Assembly: GCA_902787755.1 (NCBI GenBank)
Contig: CADAHL010000018.1
Span: 1-42,491 of the forward strand
Source: Oscillospiraceae bacterium
GTDB taxonomy: Bacteria; Bacillota; Clostridia; Oscillospirales; Oscillospiraceae
Direction: 5' to 3'
Length of the DNA stretch: 42,491 nt
The translations under genes were made by a program, and so were the position numbers. Position 1 is the first letter of the stretch. Every line of letters starts with the position of its first letter. A model generated the notes under the pieces. It searched no databases. It was not told the origin of the DNA and saw nothing but the letters and a program-made list of their open reading frames with translations. This document shows, piece by piece, positions 4,855 through 39,247 of this stretch.

Positions 4855-4885
4855 GCTCCGAATTCCGAACTCCGAATTCCGAATT
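4855..4885. repeat. ATTCCGA heptamer array, four units
   Basis: Four consecutive 7-bp units (GCTCCGA, ATTCCGA, ACTCCGA, ATTCCGA) plus ATT. It lies 25 bases from the stop codon of the MTA/SAH nucleosidase gene and is one of five such arrays in the window, each with four units. Confidence 0.85.
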
Positions 4886-4910
4886 TTCCCTCGTCCCCAG
4901 CGCGCAGCGC

Positions 4911-5588
4911 TCACAGCTCCCGGATGATCCGGTCGGCCACCTCCAGGCAGATCCGGGAGGTCTCGGCCAGGGCCGCGCCGAAGTCCTGGCCGCCCTGGGT
5001 CAGGCCGTCGGAGACGGTCTTGATCAGCAGGCAGGGGATGCCGCTGCGGTCGCAGGTCAGCACCACGGCGGCAGCCTCCATCTCGCAGATATCTGCGTCC
5101 CAGCGCTCATGCAGGGCGTTCTTGGCCTCTCTGCCCTCCACGAACTTGTCCGCGGAGGCGCAGGTGACCCGCTTCAGCTCTGGGAAAATGGCCACGGCCT
5201 TGTCGATCAGCTCCGGCGTGGGGCGCAGGTACTCGTCCGGGTACTGGATGTAGCGCCCGGGCTGGACGCCGTCGTAGGCGGAGGTATCAAAGTCGTAGTG
5301 GACCACCCGCTCCACCACGCAGGTTTTGGTCTGGCCCATCTCCTCGGTCAGGCCGCCCACCACGCCGAAGTTCACCACCAGCTCCACCTCGTAGCGGTCG
5401 ATGAGCATCTGAGCAGCCGCGGCGGCGGAGAGCTCTCCGGCGCCGGAGCGCATCACGTACAGCTCATAGCCGCCCATATCATAAAGGTGCATCTCAAAGC
5501 CGTGGCGGATCTCCGTCCGCTCCGCGGTCCCATAGCGGCGCAGCACCGCGTCCATCTCCACCGCCACCAGCATTCCGATTTTCTTCAT
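4911..5588 (-). CDS. mtnN: 5'-methylthioadenosine/S-adenosylhomocysteine nucleosidase (225 aa)
   Basis: A purine nucleoside phosphorylase-fold enzyme that cleaves adenine from methylthioadenosine and S-adenosylhomocysteine, by-products of polyamine synthesis and SAM-dependent methylation. Visible features are the N-terminal acidic residue in MLVAVEMDAV, the central NFGVVGG, the substrate-pocket Glu in ICEMEAAAVV and the catalytic Asp in VSDGLTQGGQDF. Length fits the family. The start MKKIGML has AAGGAG eight bases upstream; an in-frame upstream extension has no ribosome-binding site and overlaps the mtaB 3' end. It follows mtaB by 47 bases, which suggests co-transcription. Some related family members use other nucleosides, so substrate preference is inferred. 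Confidence 0.85.
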   Translation of the reverse strand: MKKIGMLVAVEMDAVLRRYGTAERTEIRHGFEMHLYDMGGYELYVMRSGAGELSAAAAAQMLIDRYEVELVVNFGVVGGLTEEMGQTKTCVVERVVHYDFDTSAYDGVQPGRYIQYPDEYLRPTPELIDKAVAIFPELKRVTCASADKFVEGREAKNALHERWDADICEMEAAAVVLTCDRSGIPCLLIKTVSDGLTQGGQDFGAALAETSRICLEVADRIIREL

Positions 5589-5635
5589 GGGAAACTTCTC
5601 CTTCTTCTCTTGTTGTCGGGAATGGGCCCGGCTCC

Positions 5636-6943
5636 TCAATTCCGAATTCCGATCTCCGAATTCCGAACCTCCCCAATGGCCTTCTCCCCGTCGATACCGG
5701 TGATACGCACCGGGAGGAGCTGACCCTGCAGGCCCGTGTCCGGGACCTTCACCAGCAGATAGGTGTCGCTGTGGCCCAGGCTGCCCTCCTCCCCGGACTC
5801 GAACAGCACCGGCAGGGTCTGGCCCACGCTCTCTTCCAGAAAGCGCAGATGCATCCGGGCCGCAAGCGTCTGGGCCTCATGGGCCCGGGCGGCCTTCACG
5901 GCGTTGGTGCACTGCCCGGGCATGGCGTCCGCCGGAGTGCCGGGCCGCCGGGAGTAGGGGAAGATGTGCATATCCGCAAAGGCGCACTTCTGAATAAAGG
6001 CCAGGGTCTGGGCCTGGTCCTCCTCGGTCTCGCCGGGAAAGCCGGTGATCAGATCGGTGGTGATGGCGCAGCCGGGGAACCAGCGCCGCAGCCGCTCCAC
6101 GGATTCGTAGTACCGGGCCGTGTCGTACTTCCGGTTCATGGCCTTCAGGATCCGGTCGCAGCCGGACTGGAGGGACAGGTGAAAATGACGGCAGAGCTTG
6201 CCGCTGCGGGCAGCCTTCCGGCAGAAGTCCTCGGTGATCAGCGTGGGCTCCAGGGAGCCCAGGCGCAGGCGCATGGGGCCGGAGACGGCGGCCACCGCGT
6301 CGATCAAATCCCCCAGATCCGGCTTCCCGGGCAGATCCACCCCGTAGGCGGCCACCTCAATGCCGGTGAGCACCAGCTCCCGGAAGCCCAGATCCCGCAG
6401 CCTCTCCGTCTCGGCCACGGCGTCCTCCAGGGGCAGGCTGCGCAGCCGCCCCCGGGTGTAGGGGATGATGCAGTAGCTGCAGAAGTTGACGCAGCCGTCC
6501 TGGACCTTGAGCATGGCCCGGGTCCGGCCGGCCAGAGCCCCGGCGGGCAGCTTCTCATAGCTCCGGCGCTGGAAGGGCCGGTCGATGCTGGTCTCCTCCG
6601 TTCCCTCGACCACCGCCTTCTCCACCGCCCGGACAAAATCGGCCCGGTCGGCGGCGCCGAAGATCACCCGGCAGCCGATCTCCCTGGCCTCCTCGGGGCT
6701 GAGTTGGGAATAGCAGCCGCAGACTGCCAGCACCGCACCGGGATTCTCGTCCCGGAGCCGGCGCAGAAGCTGGCGGGACTTTCGCCCGCTCTCCGCCGTC
6801 ACGGCGCAGGTGTTCACGATCACCGCGTCGGCCAGCTCGCCGGGGGAGGCGGGCTCATGGCCGTCCTCCCGGAGCATGCTCTCCATGGCCTGGGTCTCAT
6901 ACTGGTTGACCTTGCAGCCCAAAGTCGATATAATATACTTCAT
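5636..6943 (-). CDS. mtaB: tRNA t6A37 methylthiotransferase MtaB (435 aa)
   Basis: A radical-SAM methylthiotransferase that adds methylthio to threonylcarbamoyladenosine at position 37 of tRNAs reading ANN codons. The N-terminal UPF0004 domain starts MKYIISTLGCKVNQYE and has Cys10, Cys46 and a CGC at 75-77 for one 4Fe-4S cluster. The radical-SAM motif is CVNFCSYC (Cys151, 155, 158). A TRAM-like domain follows. The start codon has AAAGGTG about ten bases upstream. The 3' end is odd: the last nine or ten codons (RNSEIGIRN) and the stop codon are written by a four-unit TTCGGAA heptamer array, so the original C-terminus seems to have been replaced or extended. Confidence 0.92.
   Translation of the reverse strand: MKYIISTLGCKVNQYETQAMESMLREDGHEPASPGELADAVIVNTCAVTAESGRKSRQLLRRLRDENPGAVLAVCGCYSQLSPEEAREIGCRVIFGAADRADFVRAVEKAVVEGTEETSIDRPFQRRSYEKLPAGALAGRTRAMLKVQDGCVNFCSYCIIPYTRGRLRSLPLEDAVAETERLRDLGFRELVLTGIEVAAYGVDLPGKPDLGDLIDAVAAVSGPMRLRLGSLEPTLITEDFCRKAARSGKLCRHFHLSLQSGCDRILKAMNRKYDTARYYESVERLRRWFPGCAITTDLITGFPGETEEDQAQTLAFIQKCAFADMHIFPYSRRPGTPADAMPGQCTNAVKAARAHEAQTLAARMHLRFLEESVGQTLPVLFESGEEGSLGHSDTYLLVKVPDTGLQGQLLPVRITGIDGEKAIGEVRNSEIGIRN
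5639..5666. repeat. ATTCCGA heptamer array inside the mtaB 3' end
   Basis: Four 7-bp units (ATTCCGA twice, TCTCCGA, ATTCCGA). Unlike the other arrays it is translated, supplying the final residues of MtaB. Confidence 0.88.
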
Positions 6944-6968
6944 CTGTGACTTTCACCTTTCAAATACC

Positions 6969-7079
6969 GGGAAGATCGAAGAGGAAATCGCTATGGTGTC
7001 CCGCGAAACGGGGCGGATTCAAACTTATGCCGCTTCGCGGCATACCGAATCTCTTCACTTTTCACTTTTTCTCTTCCCT
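6969..7079. repeat. Two-hairpin element flanked by heptads (mtaB/cysteine desulfurase gap)
   Basis: Left heptads GGGAAGA, TCGAAGA and GGAAATC run into GCTATGG-TGTCC. Then come a CCCG-CGAAA-CGGG hairpin, the linker CGGATTCAAACTT, and a second hairpin ATGCCGC-TTC-GCGGCAT. After ACCGAAT the right arm has four heptads TCTTCAC, TTTTCAC, TTTTTCT and CTTCCCT. The layout equals the copy before dnaG but both stems have different sequence. It occupies nearly the whole space between two divergent genes and so must overlap or replace their promoters. Confidence 0.65.
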
Positions 7080-7097
7080 TCGAAACGAGGTTTCGCT

Positions 7098-8225
7098 ATG
7101 CACTATTTCGACAACTCCGCCACCACCCGGGTCTGCCCGGAGGCGGCGCAGGCGGCCCTGGAGGCCATGACCGGGACCTTCGGCAACCCCAGCTCCACCC
7201 ACACCCTGGGCCGGGAGGCGAAAAAGCTCCTGGATCAGAGCCGGAAGCAGGTGGCCGACGCCCTGGGCTGTACGCCGGGAGAGCTGGTCTTTACCTCCTG
7301 CGGCTCCGAGAGCGACAACTGGGCCATTCTGGGCGGCGCTGAGGCCATGAAGCGCCGGGGCGGGCACATCATCTCCTCCCCGGTGGAGCACGACGCGGTG
7401 CGCAAAAGCCTGGAGGAGCTGGAGGCCCGGGGCTTCACCGTCACCCGGCTGAAGCCGGAAAAGGACGGCTCCGTCTCCCCGGAGGCGGTGCGGGCGGCCC
7501 TGCAGGAGGATACGGTGCTGGTGACGCTGATGCTGGTGAACAACGAGACCGGCGGCGTTACGGACATTGCCGGGGTCTCCCGGGTCCTGAAGGAATCCGG
7601 CTCCCCGGCCCTGCTGCACACCGACGCGGTCCAGGCTTTCCTGAAGGTCCCCTTCTCGGCGAAAAGTCTGGGGGCGGATCTGATCAGCGTCAGCGGCCAC
7701 AAGATCCACGCCCCCAAGGGTATCGGCGCTCTCTATCTCCGCAAGGGGCTGCGGCTCAAGCCCTATATTCTGGGCGGAGCCCAGGAGGAGGGCCGCCGGG
7801 CCGGCACCGAGGCCATGCCCCAGATCGCCGCCTTCGCCGCGGCCGCGGCCCTGGGAAAGGCCGGGCTGGCGGAAAACGGCGCCCGGATGGCGGCCCAGAA
7901 GCAGCAGCTGATCGACCGGCTGAGCCGGGAACTCCCGGAGCTGCGGTATATTCCCTCGGACGCGCCGCACATTCTCTCCATCTCCCTGCCCGGCTGGCGC
8001 AGCGAGGTGCTGATGAACTTCCTGGAGGCCCGGGAGATCTATGTATCAAAAAGCTCCGCCTGCAAGAAGGGCGGGCGGAGCCATGTGCTGGAGGCGGTGG
8101 GCCTGGACGCCAAGACCATCGACGGCGCCCTGCGCATCGGCCTTTCCCGATACACCGACCAGGAGGATCTGGACGCGCTGTGTCAGGGGCTCAAGGACGC
8201 CAGAGCCATGCTGGCGCATCGGTAA
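7098..8225 (+). CDS. Cysteine desulfurase, NifS/IscS family (375 aa)
   Basis: A class V PLP aminotransferase-fold enzyme that takes sulfur from cysteine as an enzyme persulfide for Fe-S clusters, tRNA thiolation or thiamine. It starts MHYFDNSATTRVCPEA. The PLP lysine is in SVSGHKIHAPKG (Lys202) and the persulfide cysteine in SSACKKGG (Cys322). Other family marks are GTEAMPQIAAFAAA and NNETGGVTDIAG. The start is preceded by ACGAGG. It is divergent from mtaB, which itself needs sulfur; a tRNA-sulfuration role (as with ThiI in related genomes) is plausible, but no thiI is in the window. Confidence 0.92.
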   Translation: MHYFDNSATTRVCPEAAQAALEAMTGTFGNPSSTHTLGREAKKLLDQSRKQVADALGCTPGELVFTSCGSESDNWAILGGAEAMKRRGGHIISSPVEHDAVRKSLEELEARGFTVTRLKPEKDGSVSPEAVRAALQEDTVLVTLMLVNNETGGVTDIAGVSRVLKESGSPALLHTDAVQAFLKVPFSAKSLGADLISVSGHKIHAPKGIGALYLRKGLRLKPYILGGAQEEGRRAGTEAMPQIAAFAAAAALGKAGLAENGARMAAQKQQLIDRLSRELPELRYIPSDAPHILSISLPGWRSEVLMNFLEAREIYVSKSSACKKGGRSHVLEAVGLDAKTIDGALRIGLSRYTDQEDLDALCQGLKDARAMLAHR

Positions 8226-8232
8226 GGGAAGC

Positions 8233-8305
8233 GTGAATAGTGAATACCTGCGGTGTCTCTTGGCGGGACGCCACATCTCTTCTCTTTTCACTTTTATCTC
8301 TTCCC
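8233..8305. repeat. Short variant of the heptad element
   Basis: Two GTGAATA units, then CCTGCGGTGTCTC, a GGCG-GGA-CGCC hairpin, and a right arm of 7-bp units TTTTCAC, TTTTATC and TCTTCCC. Only one hairpin is present. It fills the convergent gap after the cysteine desulfurase gene. Confidence 0.55.
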
Positions 8306-8308
8306 TTC

Positions 8309-8336
8309 ATTCCGAATTCCGAACTCCGAATTCCGA
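8309..8336. repeat. ATTCCGA heptamer array next to a permease stop codon
   Basis: Four units (ATTCCGA, ATTCCGA, ACTCCGA, ATTCCGA). The stop codon of the minus-strand permease gene (8338-8340) overlaps the trailing ATT. Confidence 0.88.
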
Positions 8337-8337
8337 A

Positions 8338-9645
8338 TTATCCCTCGTCCCCCGCGTCTTTTGGCTCCGTCTTAGCTTCTTCCTCTCTTTGTCCGGCCCT
8401 CTTGACGGCCTCTCTCGTCACCGGGTCGATGTGATCCAGATCTTCATAAGAAGCGGTCTCCCAGGGGAGGTCGCTTTTTTTCAGCCTCTTTTCCACCAGA
8501 TCGTTCAGGAGCGTGTAGATCACCACGAAGACCGGAACGCCCAGGAGCATTCCCCAGAAGCCGAAGAGGCCGGCGCCCAGGATGATGGAGAACATGACCC
8601 AGAAGCCGTCGATGCCGATGGAGTTGCCCAGGATCTTGGGCCCGATGATATTGCCGTCCACCTGCTGGAGGACGATAACGAAGATCACGAAGATCAGGGC
8701 TTTCAAAGGGTTGGCCATCAGGATAATGAAGGCGCTGGGCACCGCGCCGAGCAGGGGCCCGAAGAAGGGAATGATATTGGTCACGCCCACGATCACGCTG
8801 ACCAGCAGGGCGTAGGGCATATTCACAATGGCACAGAAGATGTAGCAGATCAGGCCGATGATGGCCGAATCCAGGAGCTTGCCGTTGATGAAGCCCATGA
8901 AGGTCCGGTCGGTGAAGGCCACGCCCTCCCGGATCTTTTCCGCCGTCTCCACGGAGAACAGGCTGTACAGAAGCCTCCGGCAGCCGGCGGTGAAGCTCTC
9001 CACGTTGCCCAGGATGTATACGGACACGATGATGCCGATGATCAGGTTGTAGATGCCCATGACCACATAGTACACGCCGGTAGTCAGGTTGGAGATCATG
9101 CTGCCCAGGCCGGGCAGGACCGTGTTCTGCACCCAGCTGCGCAGCTCCACGCTCACCTCATCCAGGACGGTGTTGGCGTACTCCATGATCTCCGGGTAAT
9201 CCCGCAGCAGGTTGTTGATCCAGACCTCCACCGTGGCGGCATAGCCGTTGGAGTTCTGCACCATGCTCTCAATGCTGCTGTACAGCTGAGGCAGGATCAG
9301 ATACACCAGGGCGGTGATGATGGCCAGCATCACGATCTCGGAGACCAGGATGGACAGGCCCCGGGCCATCTTATGCCCGTCGTCCTTTTTGTTCTTCCGG
9401 TAGGCCTTCTTCATCAGCGGCCCGAAGACGTTGCGCTCCATCAGGCGCATGAGGGGCAACAGCAGATAGGTGATCACCAGGCCCCAGATGAAGGGGCTGA
9501 GGATCTTCACCAGCTTCCCCAGCGCCTTGCCCAGGGCGGGCAGATAGCTGAGGATCATATAGAAAAGGATGGCGCAGGCGATGACGCCGAAGGCCGTCAT
9601 GCCCCAATACAGGTACTTTTTGTCCCAGTTAAAGCGGCGCCGCAT
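8338..9645 (-). CDS. AI-2E family transporter (PerM/YdiK-like permease, 435 aa)
   Basis: An integral membrane protein of the AI-2E transporter family, whose members include autoinducer exporters and ion antiporters; the substrate cannot be read here. Two N-terminal helices (about 12-34 and 40-65) come first, then a soluble helical segment (about 100-170). Then follow the conserved membrane block with NLIIGIIVSVYILGN, the family signature FFGPLLGAVPSAFIIL, and GNIIGPKILGNSIGI. The C-terminal tail is charged. The start MRRRFNWDKK has AAAGGAG seven bases upstream and a good promoter beyond. The stop codon touches a heptamer array, suggesting that array landed exactly at the gene end. Confidence 0.88.
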   Translation of the reverse strand: MRRRFNWDKKYLYWGMTAFGVIACAILFYMILSYLPALGKALGKLVKILSPFIWGLVITYLLLPLMRLMERNVFGPLMKKAYRKNKKDDGHKMARGLSILVSEIVMLAIITALVYLILPQLYSSIESMVQNSNGYAATVEVWINNLLRDYPEIMEYANTVLDEVSVELRSWVQNTVLPGLGSMISNLTTGVYYVVMGIYNLIIGIIVSVYILGNVESFTAGCRRLLYSLFSVETAEKIREGVAFTDRTFMGFINGKLLDSAIIGLICYIFCAIVNMPYALLVSVIVGVTNIIPFFGPLLGAVPSAFIILMANPLKALIFVIFVIVLQQVDGNIIGPKILGNSIGIDGFWVMFSIILGAGLFGFWGMLLGVPVFVVIYTLLNDLVEKRLKKSDLPWETASYEDLDHIDPVTREAVKRAGQREEEAKTEPKDAGDEG

Positions 9646-10022
9646 GGATCTTCTCCTTTCCGAAGGCCTCTTCCTCCGGCCTCTGTGCCTGGAAAACGCC
9701 CGAAAACCCGTTTGTTCCGTACCTCTTATTTTACTATCCCCCGGGCTGAGCGTCAACCAATAATTTCTCCTCTCGACCCTTTCTCCGGGCAGAGCTTGAT
9801 TATGTAAACTTTTTGACACCCGTTTTTCACGGAATATTCATTTTCTCCGGTGCAAAACTCTGTGGAAAATGTGTAAAACCGCCCGTTTGTCCATGGTTTA
9901 TTTCCAGTTCCTGAAATGAATATACATTTTCCCTCTGCAAAAAAAGCATAATTTGAGCAACCGGTTCAGGCTTGGCTCCTCCGCGCATATTCTATTAGCA
10001 ACACACGAAACGGGAGGTCGCC
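9646..10022. other. 377-bp divergent intergenic region
   Basis: The region between the permease and the carboxypeptidase holds the permease promoter (9728-9756) and AT-rich DNA toward the plus-strand gene. Candidate plus-strand promoter parts are TTCAGG and TATTCT spaced by 17 bases just before the ribosome-binding site. I see no RNA gene, open frame or array in it. Confidence 0.6.
9728..9756 (-). promoter_or_regulatory. Promoter of the AI-2E family permease gene
   Basis: Minus strand TTGACG (9751-9756) and TAAAAT (9728-9733) with a 17-base spacer, about 80 bases before the ATG. Confidence 0.75.
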
Positions 10023-11168: not shown

Positions 11169-11177
11169 GGGAGAGCG

Positions 11178-11211
11178 GAATGAAGGGAAGAGATAAAGGG
11201 AAAAGGGAAGA
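11178..11211. repeat. Degenerate purine heptads after the carboxypeptidase gene
   Basis: The stretch reads as 7-bp units (AATGAAG, GGAAGAG, ATAAAGG, GAAAAGG). It is close to the reverse complement of the right arm at 8285-8308, so it is another arm of the heptad family next to a hairpin. Confidence 0.45.
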
Positions 11212-11241
11212 GAATCCGGGCTTCAAACGAAGCCCGGATTC
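11212..11241. terminator. Perfect 13-bp hairpin after the carboxypeptidase gene
   Basis: GAATCCGGGCTTC, loop AAAC, GAAGCCCGGATTC. It follows the stop codon by 43 bases but has no T run on the plus strand. It may end transcription weakly or protect the 3' end. Confidence 0.55.
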
Positions 11242-11810: not shown

Positions 11811-11825
11811 GAGAATGCCCTCGAA

Positions 11826-22720: not shown

Positions 22721-22794
22721 GGTTAGTGAGGGAACAGATTTGTTCCCATTATGAAAAGAGGAGAGGTACGGATTCGCCCGGGGGTTCTGCGTCT

Positions 22795-23035
22795 CCCAGG
22801 TTCTCCCGCCGGGCGGGGACGAGCCCCGCCCCTACATGGGGACGGAACGGGTTCCGGTTCTCCGTAGGGGCGATTCACGAATCGCCCGCCGGTCCCATTC
22901 AAACCGTAGGGGCCCGGCCACGGGCTCCCCGGCGGCCCGCAGGCCAGTTCGGAATTCGGAGTTCGGAGTTCGGAATTGAGCGGGAACGTGCCGTTACACC
23001 GTAGGGGCGACCGCAAGGGTCGGCCCCTACGGTAT
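22795..23035. repeat. Cluster of GTAGGGGC palindromes
   Basis: Four hairpins lie in series. They are GGGCGGGG-ACGAG-CCCCGCCC, then CGTAGGGGCGATTCACGAAT closing with CGCCC, then GTAGGGGCCCG-GCCA-CGGGC, then ACCGTAGGGGC pairing with GGCCCCTACGGT. All but the first start with GTAGGGGC. An ATTCCGA-type array is embedded among them. These look like REP-type intergenic palindromes. Confidence 0.7.
22948..22975. repeat. TTCGGAA heptamer array, four units
   Basis: Units TTCGGAA, TTCGGAG, TTCGGAG, TTCGGAA. This is the reverse complement of the ATTCCGA family and again has exactly four units. Confidence 0.88.
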
Positions 23036-23058
23036 CAACCAGGCCGGTCTACAAAAAT

Positions 23059-23116
23059 CCAATTCGTCCCCGAAGGGGACACCGCAACTATTCACTTTTC
23101 ACTATTCACTATTCAC
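23059..23116. repeat. Right half of the heptad element ending in four TATTCAC units
   Basis: A linker ATCCAATTC, the hairpin GTCCCC-GAA-GGGGAC, ACCGCAAC, then TATTCAC, TTTTCAC, TATTCAC, TATTCAC (23089-23116). It corresponds to the second hairpin and right arm of the dnaG-proximal copy, with a different stem. The last unit contains the stop codon of the YgjP-like gene. Confidence 0.65.
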
Positions 23117-23667
23117 TTCTCCCCCGCCCGGGCCATCAGCTCAGAGCCGTGGTCCCGGAGCCATTTCTTCCGCTGCTCGTAATCCGGCAGGACCCGCCGG
23201 ACCTGGGCCCAGAACCGGGCGGAGTGGTTCATCTCCAGCCGGTGGCAGAGCTCGTGGACCACCACGTAGTCCAGCACCTCCCCGGGGGCCAGAAGCAGCA
23301 GGCAGTTGAAGTTCAGGTTCCCCTTCGCGGAGCAGCTGCCCCACTTGGTCTTCTGACAGCGCACGGAGATCTGCCCATAGTCCACCCCCACCAGGGGCGC
23401 ATACCGGGCCGCTCTTTGGGCGAAGATCTGCTTTCCCCGCTGCTTCAGCGCGGCCAGCTCCCCGGCGGTCAGGGGAGGCGTCCCCGCCGCAGGCGTGGGG
23501 CGCGCCTGGCGGTGCTTTTCCACCCAGCCGGCGTGGCTGCGCACAAAGCGGTCGATCTCCGCCCGGGGGAAGCGTCGGGGCGCCCGGACCTCCAGACTCC
23601 CGTCGGGCAGCAGCCGCAGGGCCAGGGTTCTCCGGTCGCTGCGGATCAGGGTATAGTTCAGTTCCAT
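23113..23667 (-). CDS. YgjP-type (DUF45) zinc metallopeptidase-like protein (184 aa)
   Basis: A SprT/WLM-like predicted metalloprotease of the YgjP/DUF45 family. The zinc motif is VVVHELCHRLEMNHSARFW (His138, Glu139, His142; a further His148). The family signature KTKWGSCSAKGNLNFN precedes it. The N-terminal part is a small beta-rich domain (LALRLLPDGSLEVRAPRRFP). Some relatives sit beside restriction enzymes, but here it is alone. The start MELNYTLIRSDRR has AAGGAG upstream and TATACT further up; a longer upstream frame is not supported. The stop codon falls inside a heptamer array, so the last residues may have been altered by the repeat. Confidence 0.85.
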   Translation of the reverse strand: MELNYTLIRSDRRTLALRLLPDGSLEVRAPRRFPRAEIDRFVRSHAGWVEKHRQARPTPAAGTPPLTAGELAALKQRGKQIFAQRAARYAPLVGVDYGQISVRCQKTKWGSCSAKGNLNFNCLLLLAPGEVLDYVVVHELCHRLEMNHSARFWAQVRRVLPDYEQRKKWLRDHGSELMARAGEK

Positions 23668-32644: not shown

Positions 32645-33126
32645 GGCTCAACCCCCGTGACAAAGCCCTGGCTGACCAGCAGGCCCAGCTCTTTTCCGGC
32701 AAACGGCGTCAGCTGCTTTGCGAAGACCTCCGCCACGTGTACCCGCGTCTGTCCCTCCGGAGCATCCAGGCTGACTCTGCGCACCGACAGACCTCCCGGG
32801 ATCTGCACGGATCGCTTCTCCATCTGCAGACGCCCCCGGAGGACCCGGCTCCCGCCGGCAGCCAGGATCCGCTCCTCATGCAGGATCAGCGCGCGGTTGT
32901 ACCGCAGCACCGCGCTGACGAGGGTGATGCCGATCCAGCCGGTGAGGGTAAAGGTCCCGATGGCGTACCACTCCATCCGCTGGGCGTTGAGCACGTTGGT
33001 ATTTACGCAGAAAAAGACGCACAGCCCCAGCCCGGTCAGGCATACCAGGGTGAAGACCAGGTTCCATATTCTGTTTTTTCTCCTGACGGACGCGATATGC
33101 TCCGCCGTGTAAAAGGTCGTTTTCAT
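32641..33126 (-). CDS. Two-helix membrane protein of unknown function (161 aa)
   Basis: I cannot assign a family. Two membrane helices are clear (about 20-40, IWNLVFTLVCLTGLGLCVFF, and about 53-72, AIGTFTLTGWIGITLVSAVL). A cytoplasmic domain of about 90 residues follows, with LHEERILAAGGSRVLRGRLQ and VRRVSLDAPEGQTRVHVAEVF, which looks beta-rich. The ATG is preceded by GGGAG with little spacing. TATACT lies six bases before the start, so a leaderless transcript is possible. The gene is coupled by an ATGA overlap to the 190-residue gene. Confidence 0.7.
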   Translation of the reverse strand: MKTTFYTAEHIASVRRKNRIWNLVFTLVCLTGLGLCVFFCVNTNVLNAQRMEWYAIGTFTLTGWIGITLVSAVLRYNRALILHEERILAAGGSRVLRGRLQMEKRSVQIPGGLSVRRVSLDAPEGQTRVHVAEVFAKQLTPFAGKELGLLVSQGFVTGVEP

Positions 33127-33132
33127 GCTCCC

Positions 33133-33161
33133 AGTATAGCACAGGAAAGGTGAAGAGTGAA
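33133..33161 (-). promoter_or_regulatory. Possible promoter using a heptad as -35 box
   Basis: Minus strand TTCACT (33156-33161, inside the heptad array) and TATACT (33133-33138) are 17 bases apart. The expected start point is the A of the ATG at 33126, giving a leaderless mRNA. Confidence 0.45.
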
Positions 33162-33177
33162 GAGGGAAAAGGGATGG
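33150..33177. repeat. GTGAAGA heptad array, four units
   Basis: Units GTGAAGA, GTGAAGA, GGGAAAA, GGGATGG; a left-arm form of the GTGAATA family. Confidence 0.6.
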
Positions 33178-33181
33178 CTTA

Positions 33182-33209
33182 GTGCGCAGTGCGCAGGAAA
33201 CAGTGCTCA
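33182..33209. repeat. GTGCGCA heptad array, four units
   Basis: Units GTGCGCA, GTGCGCA, GGAAACA, GTGCTCA. The deviant third unit parallels GTTAACA in the array at 39134-39161, so the position-specific pattern is shared although the unit sequence differs. Confidence 0.75.
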
Positions 33210-33247
33210 GGGGATGCGGAGGCGCGGCAAGAAGATCCGTCTGCTCA

Positions 33248-33275
33248 ATTCCGAACTCCGCATTCCGAATTCCGA
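33248..33275. repeat. ATTCCGA heptamer array, four units
   Basis: Units ATTCCGA, ACTCCGC, ATTCCGA, ATTCCGA, ending 15 bases before the -35 box of the GH13 gene. Confidence 0.88.
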
Positions 33276-33290
33276 ACTTCCCCCGCGCAC

Positions 33291-33319
33291 TTGACATTCT
33301 CTCCCGGTTTTTGTATTTT
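33291..33319 (+). promoter_or_regulatory. Promoter of the GH13 lipoprotein gene
   Basis: TTGACA (33291-33296) and TATTTT (33314-33319) separated by 17 bases; the leader to the ATG is about 20 bases. Confidence 0.8.
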
Positions 33320-33345
33320 GGAGGCAGAAAGGACGGTGCTGAACC

Positions 33346-34998
33346 ATGAAGAAAGCTGTTTGCGCGCTTCTGTGCCTGCTGCTGGTATTCTCCCTGCTGC
33401 TCGCGGGCTGCGGCGCTCCCCTGTCCACCGCCCCCGCCCCGGCGGAGGAGCTTCCGGAGGAGGAAGGCGGCGAATACCGGGTCACCGGGGACAATCTGTG
33501 CACGGACTTCGTCTGTGAGGACAACGACCGGGTCTTCTATGAGATCTTCGTGGGCTCCTTCTCCGACAGCGACGGAGACGGGGTCGGGGACCTGCGGGGC
33601 ATCATCAACCGCATGGACTACCTGAATGACGGCGACCCGGACTCCGGGCGGAGCCTGGGCGTGGAGGGTCTGTGGCTGACCCCCATTTTCAAATCCCCTT
33701 CCTATCATAAATACGACGTGACCGATTACTACACCATCGACCCGAGCTTCGGCACGCTGGAGGATCTGCAGGAGCTGGCAAAGCTGTGTGAGGAGCGGAA
33801 CGTGAAGCTCATCATCGACCTGGTGCTCAATCACAGCGGCTCCCAGAACAAGTGGTTTTCCGAGTTCAAGACCGCCCACCGGGCGGGCAACACCGAAAAC
33901 CCCTACTACGACTACTATACCTGGGCCAGACAGGGCGAGACCCCGGGCGGCCGGACCTTCCGGGCCGTGGACGGCACCGAGGACTACTACGAGTGCAACT
34001 TCTCCGGGGATATGCCGGAGCTGAACTACGACAACCCCGCCGTCCGGGAAGAGATGCTGAACGTGGCCAAATACTGGCTGGAGCAGGGTGTGGACGGCTT
34101 CCGCTTCGACGCCATCAAGTACGTCTACTTCGGCGATCACCAGGCCAACGCCGATTTCTGGAGCTGGTACGTGGATGAGCTGCGCGCCGTCAAGCCCGAC
34201 ATCTACACCGTGGGCGAGTGCTGGGATTCCGACGGCGTCACCGACGTCTACTACGGGGCCCTGAACTGCTTCAACTTCACCGTGTCCCAGGCGGAGGGCC
34301 TGATCGCCAAGGCCGCCGGGGGCGGAGACGTGAGCATCCTGACCAATTATGTGGAGAGCTACGTGGATCGGATCCGGGGCCTGCGTTCCGACGCCGCCAT
34401 CGTGCCCTTCGTGTCCAACCACGACATGGACCGGGCCGCGGGCTTCCTGCCGGTGACCAACGGCCGGGCCTATATGGCCGCCAACCTCTATCTGCTGGGG
34501 CCGGGCTCCCCCTTCCTGTACTACGGGGAGGAGCTGGGGATGAAGGGCTCCCGGGGCTCGTCCAATACCGACGCCAACCGCCGCCTGGCCATGGTCTGGG
34601 GCGACGGGGACACGGTGGCCGATCCGCCGGAGACCAGCTACGACGCCTCCAAGCAGGTATCCGCCACCGCCGCCGACCAGATCACGGACCCGGGCAGCCT
34701 CTATACCTATTATAAGACGCTGATCATGATCCGCCACGCCAATCCCGAGATCGCCCGGGGCGAGTACCACGCCGTGAAAAGCGACAGCAAGCTGGGCGGC
34801 TTCGTCTCCGTCTGGAACGGCAGCGCGGTCTGTGTGCTGCACAACACCACCCAGAACGAGCTGAGCTACGATCTGTCCCGGATCGACGGATTCAGCTTTG
34901 ACGAGATCTCCGCCGTGGCGGGTCTGAACGGCGCCAGCCTGGAGGGGACCGTTCTCACCCTGGGCCCCCAGACCAGCGCGGTCCTCCGGGAGGGCTGA
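33346..34998 (+). CDS. GH13 alpha-amylase family lipoprotein (550 aa)
   Basis: A secreted, lipid-anchored alpha-glucan hydrolase. The signal ends in LLLAGC (Cys22), then an acidic linker. The barrel begins VFYEIFVGSFSDSDGDGVGD, a Ca-binding-like loop. The catalytic set is complete: nucleophile Asp255 in GFRFDAIKY, acid/base Glu291 in YTVGECWD and transition-state Asp360 in FVSNHDMDR. A short beta-domain ends the protein. Layout resembles extracellular oligo-1,6-glucosidase or alpha-amylase enzymes of the neopullulanase neighbourhood; exact specificity is not readable. It lies near the malto-oligosaccharide importer and could feed it. It has its own promoter and ends in a two-way terminator. 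Confidence 0.92.
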   Translation: MKKAVCALLCLLLVFSLLLAGCGAPLSTAPAPAEELPEEEGGEYRVTGDNLCTDFVCEDNDRVFYEIFVGSFSDSDGDGVGDLRGIINRMDYLNDGDPDSGRSLGVEGLWLTPIFKSPSYHKYDVTDYYTIDPSFGTLEDLQELAKLCEERNVKLIIDLVLNHSGSQNKWFSEFKTAHRAGNTENPYYDYYTWARQGETPGGRTFRAVDGTEDYYECNFSGDMPELNYDNPAVREEMLNVAKYWLEQGVDGFRFDAIKYVYFGDHQANADFWSWYVDELRAVKPDIYTVGECWDSDGVTDVYYGALNCFNFTVSQAEGLIAKAAGGGDVSILTNYVESYVDRIRGLRSDAAIVPFVSNHDMDRAAGFLPVTNGRAYMAANLYLLGPGSPFLYYGEELGMKGSRGSSNTDANRRLAMVWGDGDTVADPPETSYDASKQVSATAADQITDPGSLYTYYKTLIMIRHANPEIARGEYHAVKSDSKLGGFVSVWNGSAVCVLHNTTQNELSYDLSRIDGFSFDEISAVAGLNGASLEGTVLTLGPQTSAVLREG

Positions 34999-35015
34999 GG
35001 CGCTACGGCGGTTCA

Positions 35016-35064
35016 GTGCTCAGTGCTCAGTGCTCAGTGCTTTGTGCATAGTGCTCAGTGCATA
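35016..35064. repeat. GTGCTCA heptad array, seven units
   Basis: Seven consecutive units: GTGCTCA three times, then GTGCTTT, GTGCATA, GTGCTCA, GTGCATA. It is the longest array in the window and lies between the GH13 stop codon and the terminator stem. Confidence 0.85.
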
Positions 35065-35072
35065 GATAAAAA

Positions 35073-35116
35073 TTCCGGGGAATGCGATATCCGCTCGCAT
35101 TCCCCGGAAACTTTTT
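35073..35116. terminator. Bidirectional terminator between the GH13 and surface protein genes
   Basis: TTCCGGGGAATGCGA (35073-35087) pairs perfectly with its complement at 35095-35109 around TATCCGC. T runs follow on the plus strand (CTTTTTT) and the minus strand (TTTTT). Confidence 0.92.
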
Positions 35117-35144
35117 TCCTGATTTGTCGTCTTTGCCTCCGCGG

Positions 35145-37907
35145 CTACTTGCCGTCCCTGCGGTTCCGGCGCAGAAGGAGGACCACCACCGCCACGACGG
35201 CGGCCAGAGCGACCAGCGCCAGAATGGCGAAGAAGACGGGATTGCTCTCATCCCCGGTCTTGGGATTGGCGCCGGGACCCTTCGCCGCGCTGCTGCCGGA
35301 GCTGCCGGAGGAAGAGCTGCCCGTCCGCTCCCACACCGCGTACAGGGTCACGTCGCCGCCGGTGATCTCCGCCTCGTCCCCGGCCAGGAACTGGGCGCTG
35401 CCCCGTCGGGTCACGGCCCAGCCCTTGAAGGTGTAGCCGCTGCGGGTGGGCTGCTGATCGGTGATGGTCAGCTTGCCGGAGTATTTGCCGCTGCCGTTTT
35501 TCGTCTGGGTCAGCAGGGTCTGGGCCCCGGGGGCGTTGGAGCCGCCGTTGGCGTCATAGTACAGGGTGTAGTTCTTCACCCAGACGGCGTAGAGGGTCGT
35601 GTCCTCGCTGACGCGAATGTCGCGCTTGGCGGCCTTGTCGGCGTCGTGCCTGTACTCGCCGGCAGTGGCGTCCGGATCCTCGCTCCAGCCGTCGAAGGTG
35701 TAGTAGTCCCGACTGGGCTCCTGCTCCGGGATATCCACCTGGAAGCCCATTCCGGAGGCCGAGCTGTCGCTGGTGCCCACCACATGGATGATGGGCTCCG
35801 GGGCGCCGACGCCGCCGTTGGCGTCGAAGGTCAGGGTGGCAAAGACCTGGTCCACGTCGGCGATCCCATCCCCGTTCTCGTCATAGCCCCAGACGGCGTA
35901 GACGGTGACCGAGGGGGTAAAGCTCAGATTGGCCGGATCGACGCCGGGGACGGCGACGGTCTCGATGGTCTGGGGCTTTGACTCGTCACCATTGACGTAG
36001 ATGTGTTCGTCCTTCTCTGTGGACCAGCCGAGGAACAGGATCGGCGTGCCGTCCTCTTCCGGGGCGTGGGTGGGTGCGGGAGTCTGCTTCAGCTTGTAAT
36101 TCTGCTGTTCGGACAACCCTATATCCTGTCGGGGGCCTGTTCCGTCGTTGCCGCCGTTCACATCGTAGATCACCGCAGACAACTGGACGGCGCTGAGCAT
36201 CTTGGTCTCGGCCGTCTTTTCTCCCAGGCTGAAGTTGGCCGGGCTGCCGGTCTCGCTGACCTTGATCTCCAGGTCAACCCTGGCTGTGGTCTTGATGATC
36301 TCGTCCTTCTCGGCGGTGCTGGGAGTAAAATTGGCAAGGGGCAGCTGGGCGCTGAAGCTCAGCGTGGCTTTCTGATTCTCTTTTCCGATGTTGTCCTTCC
36401 AATTCTCCCGAAGCTTGAAGGCGAAGCGGAACGTGCCGTCCTCATTGTGGACCGGCTCTCCGTCCAGCTCGAACAGGTCGCTGCTGAAGCCGGGCTCCGA
36501 CAGCTCCTGGGTCAGACGCTCATCCAGGGTAACCGTGATGGTGCCCTTGAAGTCCACGTCGGACAGATATTCCACCTTACTGGCCGTCTCCAGCTTGGAA
36601 CGCGCGTCCTCGGACAGGGTAAAGTCCAGAGAATAGGCGATGGTCTTGTACAGGGTCTGATAGGAGTGGAGCTCGTCGGGATCCGCGGTAAATACCAGGG
36701 TGCTGCCGTCTCCGCTAGTCTCCTGGGTCCCCGGGTTCAGGATATCCCCCAAGTCGTTGGTCACCGCGGGCTGGGACACCCGGTTGGTCAGGGACGGGGC
36801 CGCGCCCTCCCGCTCCTGAAGGACCGCACCCTCAAAAACCTGGGCGGCGGCTTCGTCCTCCAGGCGCACCGCGCTCAGCGGCGCCCGGGTCACGGGTTCC
36901 GGGACGGCCTGGAGCTGAACCTCGGCCTCCGGCGCCGGCTCCTCCACGTCGGCGATCACCGAGCCCTCCTGGGCCGCCAGACGGCTGCGGCCGGTCAGAC
37001 GCGCGGCACTCAGACCGCCGAAATTCCGCAGCTCAGCGCCGGCGGACAGGATCAGGGAGGAATCCCCGTAGGCGGCGATGATGGCGTCCTGGCTCTTGTC
37101 CAGATTATCGAGTACCGGGGCCGGGGTCTCCTCCGGCTCGGCGGCGGTCTCCTCCGGGGCTTCCCCGGCCGGGGCCTCCTCCGCAGGAACTTCTTCCGCC
37201 GCAGGTTCTTCCGTCAGCGTCTCTTCCGCGGTCTCCTCCGCCGGTGCCTCTGTGGGAGTCAGCGGCTGCTGCGCCTCCCGCTTCTCGCCCCGGCTGAGCC
37301 CTCTGTCGTCCAGGATCAGATTCTCCACCATCAGAGCGGCGGAGGCCCGGGAGCCGTCGGCACTGCCCAGCTCGATCATGGCCGGGTGGTACTCGCCCCG
37401 GAGGGCGTCGACGGCGATCTGGAAATTCCGGGACCGGCTCAGGGTCCAGGGTCCGCCCTGGCCCTGGAGGATCACGGTCTTGCCGGAGAAACGCGCCACG
37501 GTATCCAGCTCCAGATCCGAGGTCACCAGGATATAGACCAGGGCTGTGGGAGCCTCCTGGGCGGCCTGGGCCGCCCGGGCCAGAGAGGCGAAGGGCAGGG
37601 TCTGGGAGCCGTCGCCCAGGTAGTCATGGCCCAGGTAGTTCACGTAGATCTCGGTATACTCCCCGGCTTCCGGTTCGTCCTGGGACAGTTCTCCCTCCAC
37701 ACGGCTGATACCGCCCCCGGCTTCCGCCTCCCCGGGCAGCTCCTCCTGGGGCTCAACCGTCTCCGTCGGATCGGCGAGCGGCTCGACGCTCTCCTCCGCA
37801 GGCTCCGTCTCTCCGCCCTCCTCGCCGAAGGCGGGAACAGCAAGGGACAACAGCAGGATCAGCGCAAACAGCAGCGACAGCCAGCGTCTGCAAGATATAC
37901 CGGTCAT
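35145..37907 (-). CDS. Wall-anchored surface protein with InlB-type repeats (920 aa)
   Basis: A large secreted protein. Residues about 8-33 (SLLFALILLLSLAVPAFGEE) are the signal peptide. An acidic region comes next, then a segment with YVNYLGHDYLGDGSQTLPFA suggesting a beta-helix start. After it comes a low-complexity Glu/Ala/Pro/Thr stretch (TEAPAEETAEETLTEEP) and a domain with FTLSEDARSKLETASKVEYL. At least three InlB/Flg_new-type repeats follow (TLTFDANGGVGAPEP, YTLYYDANGGSNAPG, each with GWA/GWS and TLYAVW). The C-terminus is a sorting signal, NPKTGD (881-886), a hydrophobic helix and RRNRRDGK. The start MTGISCRRW is favoured over MSMTG because GGGAGG is seven bases away. Adhesion is likely but unproven; no sortase gene is present here. 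Confidence 0.88.
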   Translation of the reverse strand: MTGISCRRWLSLLFALILLLSLAVPAFGEEGGETEPAEESVEPLADPTETVEPQEELPGEAEAGGGISRVEGELSQDEPEAGEYTEIYVNYLGHDYLGDGSQTLPFASLARAAQAAQEAPTALVYILVTSDLELDTVARFSGKTVILQGQGGPWTLSRSRNFQIAVDALRGEYHPAMIELGSADGSRASAALMVENLILDDRGLSRGEKREAQQPLTPTEAPAEETAEETLTEEPAAEEVPAEEAPAGEAPEETAAEPEETPAPVLDNLDKSQDAIIAAYGDSSLILSAGAELRNFGGLSAARLTGRSRLAAQEGSVIADVEEPAPEAEVQLQAVPEPVTRAPLSAVRLEDEAAAQVFEGAVLQEREGAAPSLTNRVSQPAVTNDLGDILNPGTQETSGDGSTLVFTADPDELHSYQTLYKTIAYSLDFTLSEDARSKLETASKVEYLSDVDFKGTITVTLDERLTQELSEPGFSSDLFELDGEPVHNEDGTFRFAFKLRENWKDNIGKENQKATLSFSAQLPLANFTPSTAEKDEIIKTTARVDLEIKVSETGSPANFSLGEKTAETKMLSAVQLSAVIYDVNGGNDGTGPRQDIGLSEQQNYKLKQTPAPTHAPEEDGTPILFLGWSTEKDEHIYVNGDESKPQTIETVAVPGVDPANLSFTPSVTVYAVWGYDENGDGIADVDQVFATLTFDANGGVGAPEPIIHVVGTSDSSASGMGFQVDIPEQEPSRDYYTFDGWSEDPDATAGEYRHDADKAAKRDIRVSEDTTLYAVWVKNYTLYYDANGGSNAPGAQTLLTQTKNGSGKYSGKLTITDQQPTRSGYTFKGWAVTRRGSAQFLAGDEAEITGGDVTLYAVWERTGSSSSGSSGSSAAKGPGANPKTGDESNPVFFAILALVALAAVVAVVVLLLRRNRRDGK

Positions 37908-37990
37908 GGACATACCTCCCGAAAGCGGCAAAAAAAGCTCTGCCGCCTTAAAACTTTCATTCAGATAACAATCGCTTTTCTTCATTTTGA

Positions 37991-37996
37991 ATTATA
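37991..37996 (-). promoter_or_regulatory. Extended -10 promoter of the surface protein gene
   Basis: Minus strand TGGTATAAT, an extended -10 box. The -35 region is poor. The leader would be about 75 bases. Confidence 0.6.
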
Positions 37997-38127
37997 CCAT
38001 AGCAATTCTAAAAAAGGTATGAGATTCTCGGCGGAAAAAACAGAAAAAATTTTTACGGAAAAGAAGGGAAATCTCATTTTGCGTCGTATTTCTTGAATAG
38101 AGGTAAAATCGCGAGGAGGTATGATCC

Positions 38128-39132
38128 ATGTCCTGTCCCCGGGAAGAACGCGAAGCGCTGGAGCGCCTGCTGGTGGGTCCCTACGGGGTTCTGGCTGCGG
38201 ACACCAGGGGCCGGGCGATACCCGAGCCCGAGTGCCAGATCCGCACCTGCTTCCAGCGGGATGTCGACCGGATCACCCACTCCAAGTCCTTCCGCCGCCT
38301 GAAGCACAAGACCCAGGTCTTCCTCCAGCCGGAGGGGGATCACTACCGCACCCGCCTGACCCACACCCTGGAGGTGACCCGTCTGGCCCGGACGGTGGCC
38401 CGGGCCCTGCGGCTCAACGAGGATCTGGCCGAGGCCATGGCCCTGGGTCACGATCTGGGTCACACCCCCTTCGGCCACGCCGGAGAGCGGGCGCTGAACC
38501 GGATCTACGAGGGCGGCTTCAAGCACTACGAGCAGAGCCTGCGGGTGGTGGATATCCTGGAGCGGGACGGTCAGGGCCTGAACCTGTGCTGGGAGACCCG
38601 GATGGGTATCCTGCACCACACCTTCGGCGCCCCGGACGACACCCGGGAGGCCACCACGGTCCGTCTCTGCGACCGGATCGCCTACATCAACCACGACCTG
38701 GACGACTCCATCCGGGCGGGCCTGCTGACCGCGGAGGACGTGCCCGCCCTCATCCGGGAAAACTGCGGAGAGCGCAACAGCGAACGCATCAACGCCTTCA
38801 TCACGGACCTTGTGGCGAACAGCACCGGCGGGGAGCTGAAAATGTCCCCCCGGATGCAGGAGACCTTTGATTTCTTCCACCGCTTCATGTACTCCGACGT
38901 GTACACCAACCCTGTGGCCAAGAGCGAGGAGAGCAAGGTGGAGGGGATCCTGGCAAAGCTGTTTGAGTACTACGTGGCCCATCCCGACAGACTGCCGGAG
39001 GATCTGCGGCCCGTCATCGACCGGGACGGCCTGGGCCGGGCGGTCTGCGACTATATCTCCGGCATGACCGACGGCTACGCCATGGAAAAATACGGCGAGC
39101 TGTTTATCCCCTTCGCCTGGAGCGTGAAATAG
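38128..39132 (+). CDS. dgt: Deoxyguanosinetriphosphate triphosphohydrolase-like protein (334 aa)
   Basis: An HD-domain dNTP triphosphohydrolase that splits dNTPs to nucleoside and tripolyphosphate, helping to balance DNA precursors. Motifs are ITHSKSFRRLKHKTQVF, RTRLTHTLEVTRLA (His79), the HD pair in ALGHDLGHTPFGHAGE (His108, Asp109) and a later Asp in CDRIAYINHDLDD. Length fits the shorter Firmicute form. GAGGAGG is eight bases before this ATG; an ATG seven bases earlier is in another frame and too close to it. It opens the cluster dgt-dnaG-rpoD, a common order in Clostridia. A weak TAAAAT lies at 38104-38109. Confidence 0.92.
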   Translation: MSCPREEREALERLLVGPYGVLAADTRGRAIPEPECQIRTCFQRDVDRITHSKSFRRLKHKTQVFLQPEGDHYRTRLTHTLEVTRLARTVARALRLNEDLAEAMALGHDLGHTPFGHAGERALNRIYEGGFKHYEQSLRVVDILERDGQGLNLCWETRMGILHHTFGAPDDTREATTVRLCDRIAYINHDLDDSIRAGLLTAEDVPALIRENCGERNSERINAFITDLVANSTGGELKMSPRMQETFDFFHRFMYSDVYTNPVAKSEESKVEGILAKLFEYYVAHPDRLPEDLRPVIDRDGLGRAVCDYISGMTDGYAMEKYGELFIPFAWSVK

Positions 39133-39133
39133 A

Positions 39134-39247
39134 GTGAAGAGTGAATAGTTAACAGTGAATCGTTATGGTGTCCGCTCCGCGGACGGAATTTGAATCATCG
39201 CCGAAGGCGATACCGCAATTATTCACTATTCATTATTCACTATTCAC
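39134..39247. repeat. Two-hairpin element with inverted heptamer arms (dgt-dnaG gap)
   Basis: The best copy in the window. The left arm has four heptads (GTGAAGA, GTGAATA, GTTAACA, GTGAATC; 39134-39161). Then come GTTATGGTGTCC, a hairpin with GTCCGC and GCGGAC stems, the linker GGAATTTGAATCAT, the hairpin CGCC-GAA-GGCG, and GATACCGCAAT. The right arm is TATTCAC, TATTCAT, TATTCAC, TATTCAC (39220-39247). The arms are largely complementary, and GGTGTC can pair with GATACC, so the RNA can fold as a long stem closing a junction with two hairpins. It lies inside an essential operon and must be transcribed. Confidence 0.75.

What the first reader, a model, noticed from the sequence alone, without database searches (positions are those of the whole stretch)
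4855..39247. Dispersed 28-bp arrays made of four 7-bp units, in three unrelated sequence families
Seen directly: ATTCCGA-type arrays at 4855-4882, 5639-5666, 8309-8336, 22948-22975 and 33248-33275 all have exactly four units. TATTCAC/GTGAATA-type arrays (23089-23116, 39134-39161, 39220-39247, 33150-33177) and a GTGCGCA-type array (33182-33209) also have four. Different unit sequences sharing length seven and count four argue against simple slippage, which would give variable counts. Heptameric tandem repeats (STRRs) are known from cyanobacteria; I know of no counterpart description in Clostridia. Inference: an unknown process or selection fixes period and copy number, possibly a templated copying mechanism or a protein that reads 28 bp.
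Basis: partly seen in the sequence, partly recalled or inferred. Interest (0 to 1): 0.75.

Follow-up and report, generated by a model that had tools for sequence, protein, structure and literature searches.

The report
Seven-base repeats arm a selfish element
The scattered 28-base blocks of seven-base repeats look like the two matching ends of a small selfish DNA element that normally carries one gene, and the same arrangement turns up in cyanobacteria and other bacteria, which offers a common explanation for a type of repeat known for decades.

Summary
In 442 kb of this genome there are 51 strong period-7 arrays, against 0 in shuffles and few at other periods. They are nearly all intergenic and centre on 4 units (54 of 63 have 3.5-5.0), but 'exactly four' fails: the window also has a 7-unit array. 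The arrays are arms of inverted-repeat elements. Window 39134-39161 and 39220-39247 are the two arms of one hairpin. At the same site, before dnaG, 12 of 58 congeneric genomes carry inverted heptad arms around a gene for a 23S-rRNA-IVP/S23 four-helix-bundle protein (PF05635). Of 97 distinct S23 genes, 49 have matching inverted period-7 arms (3 more period-8), against 2 of 341 control genes. Both main window families flank an S23 gene in this same genome. S23 genes on plasmids of cyanobacteria, Riemerella and Azospirillum show the same layout (Gemmatirosa: period 8). I conclude that the arrays are terminal arms of S23/IVS-type elements, mostly gene-less derivatives. Likely, but not shown: the transcribed arms pair and RNase III cuts them, and the S23 pentamer reads the heptads. 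No paper that I saw links S23 to heptameric repeats outside the rRNA.

The parts
39133..39248 (+). Complete gene-less element ('A-type' hairpin) between the stop codon of an HD-domain gene (ends 39132) and dnaG (starts 39272)
   Evidence: RNA fold (39131-39248) -46.1 kcal/mol against shuffle mean -24.5, z -6.4, three-way junction; DNA z -5.9; 15 of 25 predicted pairs show a double compensatory change among 13 hand-picked copies; 21-base core 39167-39187 identical to the core beside an S23 gene of the same genome (L187)
39134..39161 (+). Left arm, heptads GTGAAGA GTGAATA GTTAACA GTGAATC
39220..39248 (-). Right arm, inverted heptads (TATTCAC)
4715..4909 (.). Inserted intergenic block: decayed A-type hairpin (by eye) plus one TTCGGAA-family arm
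   Evidence: the aligned flanks of this gap are only about 9-11 bp apart in L083, L088 and L089
4857..4885 (-). TTCGGAA-family arm, 4.1 units
5638..5667 (-). TTCGGAA-family arm that forms the last codons of the radical-SAM/UPF0004 gene 5636-6943 (-)
8226..8308 (+). Decayed A-type hairpin directly after the stop codon (TAA 8223-8225) of the gene 6810-8225
   Evidence: read by eye; decayed hairpins of the same type at the orthologous site in L084, L085 and L087; none in L083, L086 or L090
8309..8339 (-). TTCGGAA-family arm, 4.4 units
22948..22974 (+). TTCGGAA-family left arm of a composite repeat
23087..23117 (-). GTGAATA-family right arm of the same composite, 4.4 units
33150..33174 (+). Decayed GTGAATA-family arm
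33181..33209 (+). AGTGCNC-family arm (two to three units recognisable)
33247..33276 (-). TTCGGAA-family arm, 4.3 units
35013..35061 (+).

Best explanation
The heptad arrays are the terminal inverted arms of a family of small selfish elements related to the 23S-rRNA intervening sequences (IVS). The full element is: an arm of about 4 heptads, a ribosome-binding site, a gene of about 120 codons for an S23/23S-rRNA-IVP four-helix-bundle protein, and the same heptads inverted. The copies in the window are gene-less derivatives (A-type hairpins) and single or composite arms. How it most likely works (inferred): the element sits at or near stop codons, often between operon genes, and is transcribed with them. 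The two arms pair into a duplex of about 28 bp that RNase III can cut, which frees the S23 message and limits harm to the host operon, as shown by others for the rRNA IVS. S23, a homopentameric ring in solved structures, probably binds the repeat arms (of DNA or RNA) and helps copies spread, including gene-less copies in trans. The arms evolve together: their unit sequence turns over, but the period (7, rarely 8) and the match between the two arms are kept. Shown here: anatomy, association, presence/absence, unit turnover. Not shown: RNase III cutting, binding, how copies move.
For: Association: 49 of 97 distinct full-length S23 genes have inverted period-7 arms with the same unit within 220 bp on both sides, 3 more have period-8 arms, and none has 5, 6, 9 or 10 as its best period. 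Controls: 3 of 342 own genes, one of which is itself an S23 gene; 0 of 25 other genes on a Nostoc plasmid; swapped S23 flanks match in 213 of 9,312; Fisher p 5e-35 for 49/97 against 2/341. Same genome: S23 at C6 has GTGAATA arms plus the A-type core, S23 at C11 has TTCGGAA arms. Orthologous site upstream of dnaG: 12 of 58 genomes carry arm-S23-arm, 17 of 58 have <=62 bp; 11 of the 12 pass the strict arm rule, L147 by eye. The S23 genes at that site are one lineage (91/91, tree of 41 of the 97) yet carry at least six different units, both arms matching. Prediction test: AGTGTGG-type S23 arms are known in G083, G036 and G082; these rank 1st, 2nd and joint 3rd of 102 genomes for AGTGTGG arrays (chance 2.3e-5). 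Further sample: 6 of 17 S23 genes on IMG/VR contigs have strict arms. Other phyla. Protein: PF05635 E 4.7e-42; PDB 2gsc and 2rld, five chains each. rRNA IVS precedent: 28-bp stem, RNase III excision, heptameric repeats before the S23 start (PMC4990558).
Against: 40 of 76 Clostridial and 5 of 21 plasmid S23 genes show no arms by my rule, including one of the three S23 genes of this genome (L200); at least one miss (L147) has arms visible by eye. 11 of 17 IMG/VR S23 genes fail the rule. Some genomes hold many arrays without a matching S23 gene found (G080, G091, G123 for AGTGTGG; G006 for ATTCCGA); most genomes are incomplete. No target-site duplication was seen and no mobility enzyme found: weak Y1-transposase hits occur in own, G006 and G021 but none in array-bearing G004, G019 and G023, and this genome has no RVT_1 match. 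7 of 97 also pass a same-orientation test, partly because TTCGGAA is nearly self-complementary. In Nostoc L207 the S23 gene is on the strand opposite to its neighbours, which does not fit co-transcription. RNase III cutting and S23 binding are untested here. The heptad/protein correlation (r 0.36) may be common descent only.
Confidence: 0.82

Rival explanations
1. Ordinary simple-sequence repeats made by polymerase slippage, with a bias to 7 nt (the Mrazek idea as reported in PMC4679880 and PMC4692102).
For: Heptamers are the commonest long repeat class in most repeat-rich genomes (as reported in PMC4679880); unit numbers do vary; slippage probably tunes the arrays.
Against: It does not explain inverted matching pairs around one gene family, the three-way hairpin with compensatory changes, or appearance of whole 100-500-bp inserts at an orthologous site.
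Confidence: 0.06
2. The arrays are host regulatory sites: binding sites for a regulator, or bidirectional terminators at gene ends.
For: 30 of 63 arrays lie within 15 bp of a gene 3' end against 12% of random intergenic positions; the A-type copy folds strongly; ordinary terminator-like hairpins (by eye) occupy one orthologous site in L086 and L090.
Against: Orthologous sites lack them in many relatives; units differ between relatives at one site; S23-bearing copies have arms hundreds of bases apart; A-type copies lack a clear T run by eye.
Confidence: 0.07
3. The arrays are written by a templated, telomerase-like reverse transcriptase such as DRT10.
For: DRT10 makes tandem-repeat cDNA from an RNA template (PMC12632851, passages); S23 is distantly related to the DGR accessory protein Avd (bAvd hit 35.4 bits, below its cut-off of 40).
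Against: No RVT_1 match in this array-rich genome, G004 or G006 (genomes incomplete); arrays are paired inverted arms, not one-sided additions.
Confidence: 0.03

Closest known systems
23S rRNA intervening sequences with an S23p/IVP gene (Leptospira, Coxiella; PMC4990558, abstract, passages and Discussion seen)
   Same: S23-family gene between terminal inverted repeats; about 430-450 nt there, 441-623 bp at the dnaG site here; 28-bp stem; heptameric repeats next to the gene (reported for Coxiella).
   Different: Here the elements lie between protein genes at stop codons, the whole arm consists of heptads, and most copies have lost the gene.
Heptameric STRRs of cyanobacteria, TAACTGA repeats of Beggiatoaceae (PMC4679880, abstract, two sections and passages seen), GGGAATC repeats of Xanthomonas (PMC4692102, passages seen)
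   Same: Tandem 7-nt units, intergenic, many unit sequences; inverted pairs reported in Xanthomonas (70 and 75 cases).
   Different: Those two papers treat them as free repeats and their main texts do not mention S23 or four-helix proteins (0 occurrences); here they are arms of an S23 element. Beggiatoaceae and Xanthomonas were not tested here.
MITEs / REPINs
   Same: Gene-less palindromic copies, dispersed and intergenic, sharing their ends with a gene-bearing element.
   Different: No transposase partner found (only Y1 and RVT_1 were searched); arms are tandem heptads; the parent gene is S23.
DGR accessory protein Avd
   Same: Same broad fold family (weak Pfam bAvd hit).
   Different: No reverse transcriptase in this genome; template/variable repeats were not searched for.

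Membership tests
S23/IVS element | Encodes an S23/23S_rRNA_IVP protein | tested here: met
   PF05635 E 4.7e-42; 45 of 102 congeneric genomes have a match. Window copies are gene-less derivatives; none of the three own S23 matches is on the window's contig.
S23/IVS element | Terminal inverted repeats that form a stem of about 28 bp | tested here: met
S23/IVS element | Located in a helix of 23S rRNA | tested here: not met
   Window copies and the orthologous-site copies lie between protein genes; on the plasmid stretches with annotation the S23 gene lies among protein genes (L214, L223 and L224 show no annotated features).
S23/IVS element | Excised from RNA by RNase III | not testable with these tools
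   Shown by others for the rRNA IVS (PMC4990558).
Heptameric STRR | Tandem intergenic 7-nt units | tested here: met
MITE | Short, gene-less, inverted ends shared with a gene-bearing element | tested here: met
MITE | Target-site duplication and a transposase | tested here: inconclusive
   No duplication seen in flanks read by eye; the relatives are too distant. Y1 transposase does not track the arrays; other transposase families not searched.
REPIN/RAYT | Cognate Y1 transposase | tested here: not met
   Own genome 2 weak hits, G006 2, G021 1; array-bearing G004, G019 and G023 none.
Diversity-generating retroelement | Reverse transcriptase partner | tested here: not met
   0 RVT_1 matches in this genome.

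The most novel reading that the evidence does not exclude
Many heptameric tandem repeats in bacteria (cyanobacterial STRRs, Clostridial arrays, perhaps the Beggiatoaceae TAACTGA and Xanthomonas GGGAATC repeats) are arms of one ancient class of S23 elements. The homopentameric S23 ring reads the arm one heptad per subunit, as TRAP reads spaced triplets (recalled analogy), which would fix the period at 7 and the count at 4-5 while the unit sequence drifts with the protein. A concerted process rewrites both arms together.
Probability: 0.35. Interest if true: 0.92.

Novelty: new variant of a known kind. Interest (0 to 1): 0.8.

Why it matters
Two old puzzles meet: what heptameric STRRs are (known for decades, recalled, without explanation) and what the orphan S23/IVP protein does (known from rRNA intervening sequences, function unknown). 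If the link holds, a widespread selfish element has been annotated as two unrelated things, a 'four helix bundle protein' and simple repeats. It would also be a clean natural case of concerted evolution of two inverted arms, and it makes simple biochemical tests possible.

Tried and rejected
Y1/RAYT transposase as the driver: PF01797 does not track the arrays. Reverse transcriptase as the driver: none in the own genome. Rfam: no hit in the window at gathering scores; no tRNA. Target-site duplications: not visible in flanks read by eye; the listed matches of relatives are 72-85% identical in DNA, too distant. 'Exactly four' as a rule: rejected. Phage records: only two weak S23 hits, not followed. 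Xanthomonas XCC0516 (PDB 2gsc) should be flanked by GGGAATC arrays if the idea is right; I had no way left to reach that genome. The TTCGGAA presence test (p 0.007) is partly circular and carries no weight (see full report).

Literature: 8 searches. Several listings were capped (for example 15 of 1,446, 12 of 174), so I can say only that no listed title or abstract start, and nothing I saw of the five papers opened, ties four-helix-bundle/S23 genes to heptameric repeats outside the rRNA IVS. PMC4990558 reports the heptamers inside the Coxiella IVS. The library holds open-licence papers only.
Full report
WHAT WAS CHECKED. The window is a whole contig (C18) of a 2.54-Mb genome in 86 contigs. Nearest named relatives found are Ruminococcaceae/Clostridia MAGs (the RUG names suggest rumen, recalled). 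I sampled 400 kb more of the genome (the choice of contigs was partly guided by contigs known to hold arrays, so the density is a mild over-estimate). In 442,491 bases, period-7 arrays scoring >=14 number 51, two Markov shuffles give 0, and periods 3-6, 8-13, 15-20 and 22-30 give 0-4 each (14 and 21 are harmonics, with 27 and 9 rows). Of 63 arrays at the looser cut-off the median is 4.3 units and 54 of 63 have 3.5-5.0. 30 of 63 lie within 15 bp of a gene's 3' end, against 12% of random intergenic positions. The arrays are unevenly spread: seven of the 20 sampled stretches (L043-L047, all on contig C1, L051 and L055) list none.

ANATOMY. Window 39133-39248 is one hairpin: four GTGAATA-type heptads, GTTATGGTGTC, a small hairpin, a second small hairpin, and the heptads inverted. 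It folds to -46.1 kcal/mol against -24.5 (sd 3.35) for shuffles, z -6.4, as a three-way junction. An alignment of 13 such copies (nine from this genome, four from relatives; chosen by hand) has 25 consensus pairs, of which 15 show at least one double compensatory change. The consensus structure does not include the outermost heptads. TTCGGAA-type arrays also occur as inverted pairs about 235-450 bp apart, and composites of the families lie side by side.

ELEMENTS COME AND GO. At two further window sites relatives lack the insert: the aligned flanks of the gap 4715-4909 are about 9-11 bp apart in L083, L088 and L089, and the block after the stop codon at 8225 is absent in L083, L086 and L090. 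At the third site (5639) several relatives carry other inserts. The best site is the gap between an HD-domain gene and dnaG (identities). I compared 58 congeneric genomes, those for which one search listed both genes close together on one contig (of 101 searched; its listing is truncated). 17 of 58 have 62 bp or less. 12 of 58 carry a 441-623-bp insert of the form heptad arm, gene, inverted heptad arm. 2 of 58 (G082, and G021 by eye) carry gene-less hairpins like the window's. The other 27 hold other inserts, many with palindromes; G026 and G123 of these also have a period-7 array. In G017, G019, G031, G035 and G072 the left arm is exactly 28 nt, four units, directly after the host stop codon.

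THE GENE. The inserted gene belongs to PF05635, 23S rRNA-intervening sequence protein (E 4.7e-42), with a sub-threshold bAvd hit (the copy of G019 was scanned). Solved relatives 2gsc (X. campestris XCC0516, 5e-21) and 2rld (5e-6) have five chains each; the pentameric ring is reported in PMC4990558 (passages). PF05635 occurs in 45 of 102 congeneric genomes (43 over the cut-off) and in 0 of 14 control genomes. This genome has three S23 genes. One (C6) has GTGAATA arms plus the same core as the window hairpin: a 90-base inverted repeat scoring 42 against a shuffle maximum of 18, with 21 of 21 identical bases to window 39167-39187. One (C11) has TTCGGAA arms (score 27 against 14). The third (C29, L200) shows none. 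AGTGC-type arms, the window's third family, flank S23 genes in G035 and G118.

STATISTICS. I pooled S23 loci (via 47-60 and 73-84) and 86-88: 120 domain hits, of which 107 were full length and 97 distinct (13 partial and 10 duplicates dropped). Not fetched: the five short fragments G033, G121:C85, G064, G061:C140 and G114, and five of the 31 plasmid records (H3, H22, H27, H29, H30; the same or a near strain or species as fetched ones). Rule: period-p arrays scoring >=8 within 220 bp on both sides, right unit equal to the reverse complement of the left within one mismatch. Clostridia: 35 of 76 period 7, 1 of 76 period 8, 40 none. Plasmids: 14 of 21 period 7, 2 period 8, 5 none. No gene had 5, 6, 9 or 10 as its best period. 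Fisher p 5e-35 for 49/97 against 2/341; related genes are not independent, so the p-value is nominal. A further sample of 17 distinct S23 genes on IMG/VR contigs (21 loci, 4 exact duplicates dropped) gave 6 with strict arms (5 period 7, 1 period 8; one of the six, L306, has a nearly self-complementary unit and L307 carries the same unit); 3 have arrays on both sides that miss the rule, 4 on the left only, 4 none.

OTHER PHYLA. On cyanobacterial plasmids the S23 gene and its heptads sit between nrdB- and nrdA-type genes (L207, S23 on the opposite strand), cas6 and cas4 (L205, L215), cas10 and a cmr3-type gene (L212, period 8) and beside a TraM-type gene (L211). Riemerella (L218) and Azospirillum (L223) have period-7 arms, Gemmatirosa (L214) period 8. 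In two cyanobacteria the same cas6-cas4 gap carries S23 with different units (AGGTGAC, TTAGCTT). The heptads are of the type described as STRRs; that name and its history are partly recalled.

UNIT TURNOVER. The 14 S23 genes at the dnaG site (12 by alignment, two more by contig position) form one lineage in a tree of 41 of the 97 genes (support 91/91, one change, 90% of bootstrap trees, 0 of 500 shuffles). Yet their arms use TAGTTTT, TAGTTCG, TAGTTTC, AGTTTTG, AGTTTTC, TAGTGCT or GAGATTC, with both arms of each element matching (one of the 14, L147, fails the rule). So one old insertion has apparently kept arm matching and period while the unit sequence changed. Protein distance and unit distance correlate (r 0.36, 0 of 2,000 permutations; Clostridia r 0.49, 0 of 2,000; plasmids r 0.24, 54 of 2,000). 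That fits recognition of the unit by the protein but also plain descent.

A PREDICTION. S23 genes with AGTGTGG/AGTTTGG-type arms occur in G083, G036 and G082. The pattern AGTGTGGAGTGTGG, chosen after seeing those arms, occurs in 16 of 102 congeneric genomes, most often in G083 (41), G036 (27), G082 (17) and G080 (17), then G091 (14), G123 (12) and G088 (7). One of the 17 hits of G082 is its own S23 arm. The three expected genomes are in the top four (chance 2.3e-5). Against: G080, G091 and G123 have no matching S23 that I found. For TTCGGAA, 3 of 8 array-bearing genomes and 0 of 29 others have a matching S23 (p 0.007); this is partly circular, because the S23 arms themselves contain the pattern, and own and G004 share one orthologous site, so I give it no weight.

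MECHANISM (inferred). The rRNA IVS gives the model: a 428-444-nt element with an S23 gene, a 28-bp stem, cut by RNase III, with heptameric repeats before the S23 start codon (PMC4990558; that paper also concludes that S23p is probably not made in Coxiella). The intergenic elements would behave likewise inside messenger RNA, which would explain why they are tolerated between operon genes. Why seven is open: a pentameric ring reading one heptad per subunit is my favoured guess; a polymerase-slippage bias is the alternative in print. How copies move is unknown: no reverse transcriptase in this genome and no tracking Y1 transposase.

VERDICT. The heptads are arms of S23/IVS-type elements. The family is known from rRNA; the intergenic, heptad-armed form and its identity with heptameric STRRs I found in no paper seen.

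Noticed in passing
window 39248-39272 and the orthologous site in relatives: In many element-bearing genomes the ribosome-binding site of dnaG lies in a small palindrome (GAATCACC GGAGGTGATTC) that covaries (GAACACC/GGTGTTC, GAGCACC/GGTGC); by eye the short element-free gaps mostly lack it. It may hide the site or belong to the element's end.
   Followed up: no
L201, L204: Two S23 genes of another family of the order (G039) have arms made of tandem small hairpins of about 22-25 nt instead of heptads.
   Followed up: no
window 22765-23122; L053 10515-11570; L061 4250-4745: Large composite repeats built of several GC-rich palindromes (GTAGGGGCG..., GGGGAGCTGTCGC...) nested with heptad arms.
   Followed up: no
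own genome C1 stretches L043-L047: Lower GC (0.55-0.59 against 0.60-0.64 elsewhere in the sample) and no arrays in these stretches; an island difference or a binning mix-up.
   Followed up: no
L086 site 2; L199; L212; L214: Period-8 arrays occur in place of period 7 at a few elements.
   Followed up: partly
L231 15943-16072 and 23247-23335: Pairs of heptad arrays without a gene between them on a Nostoc plasmid; the first pair is inverted with one unit (GGCAGAA/TTCTGCC), as in the window hairpin; in the second the two sides use different units.
   Followed up: no
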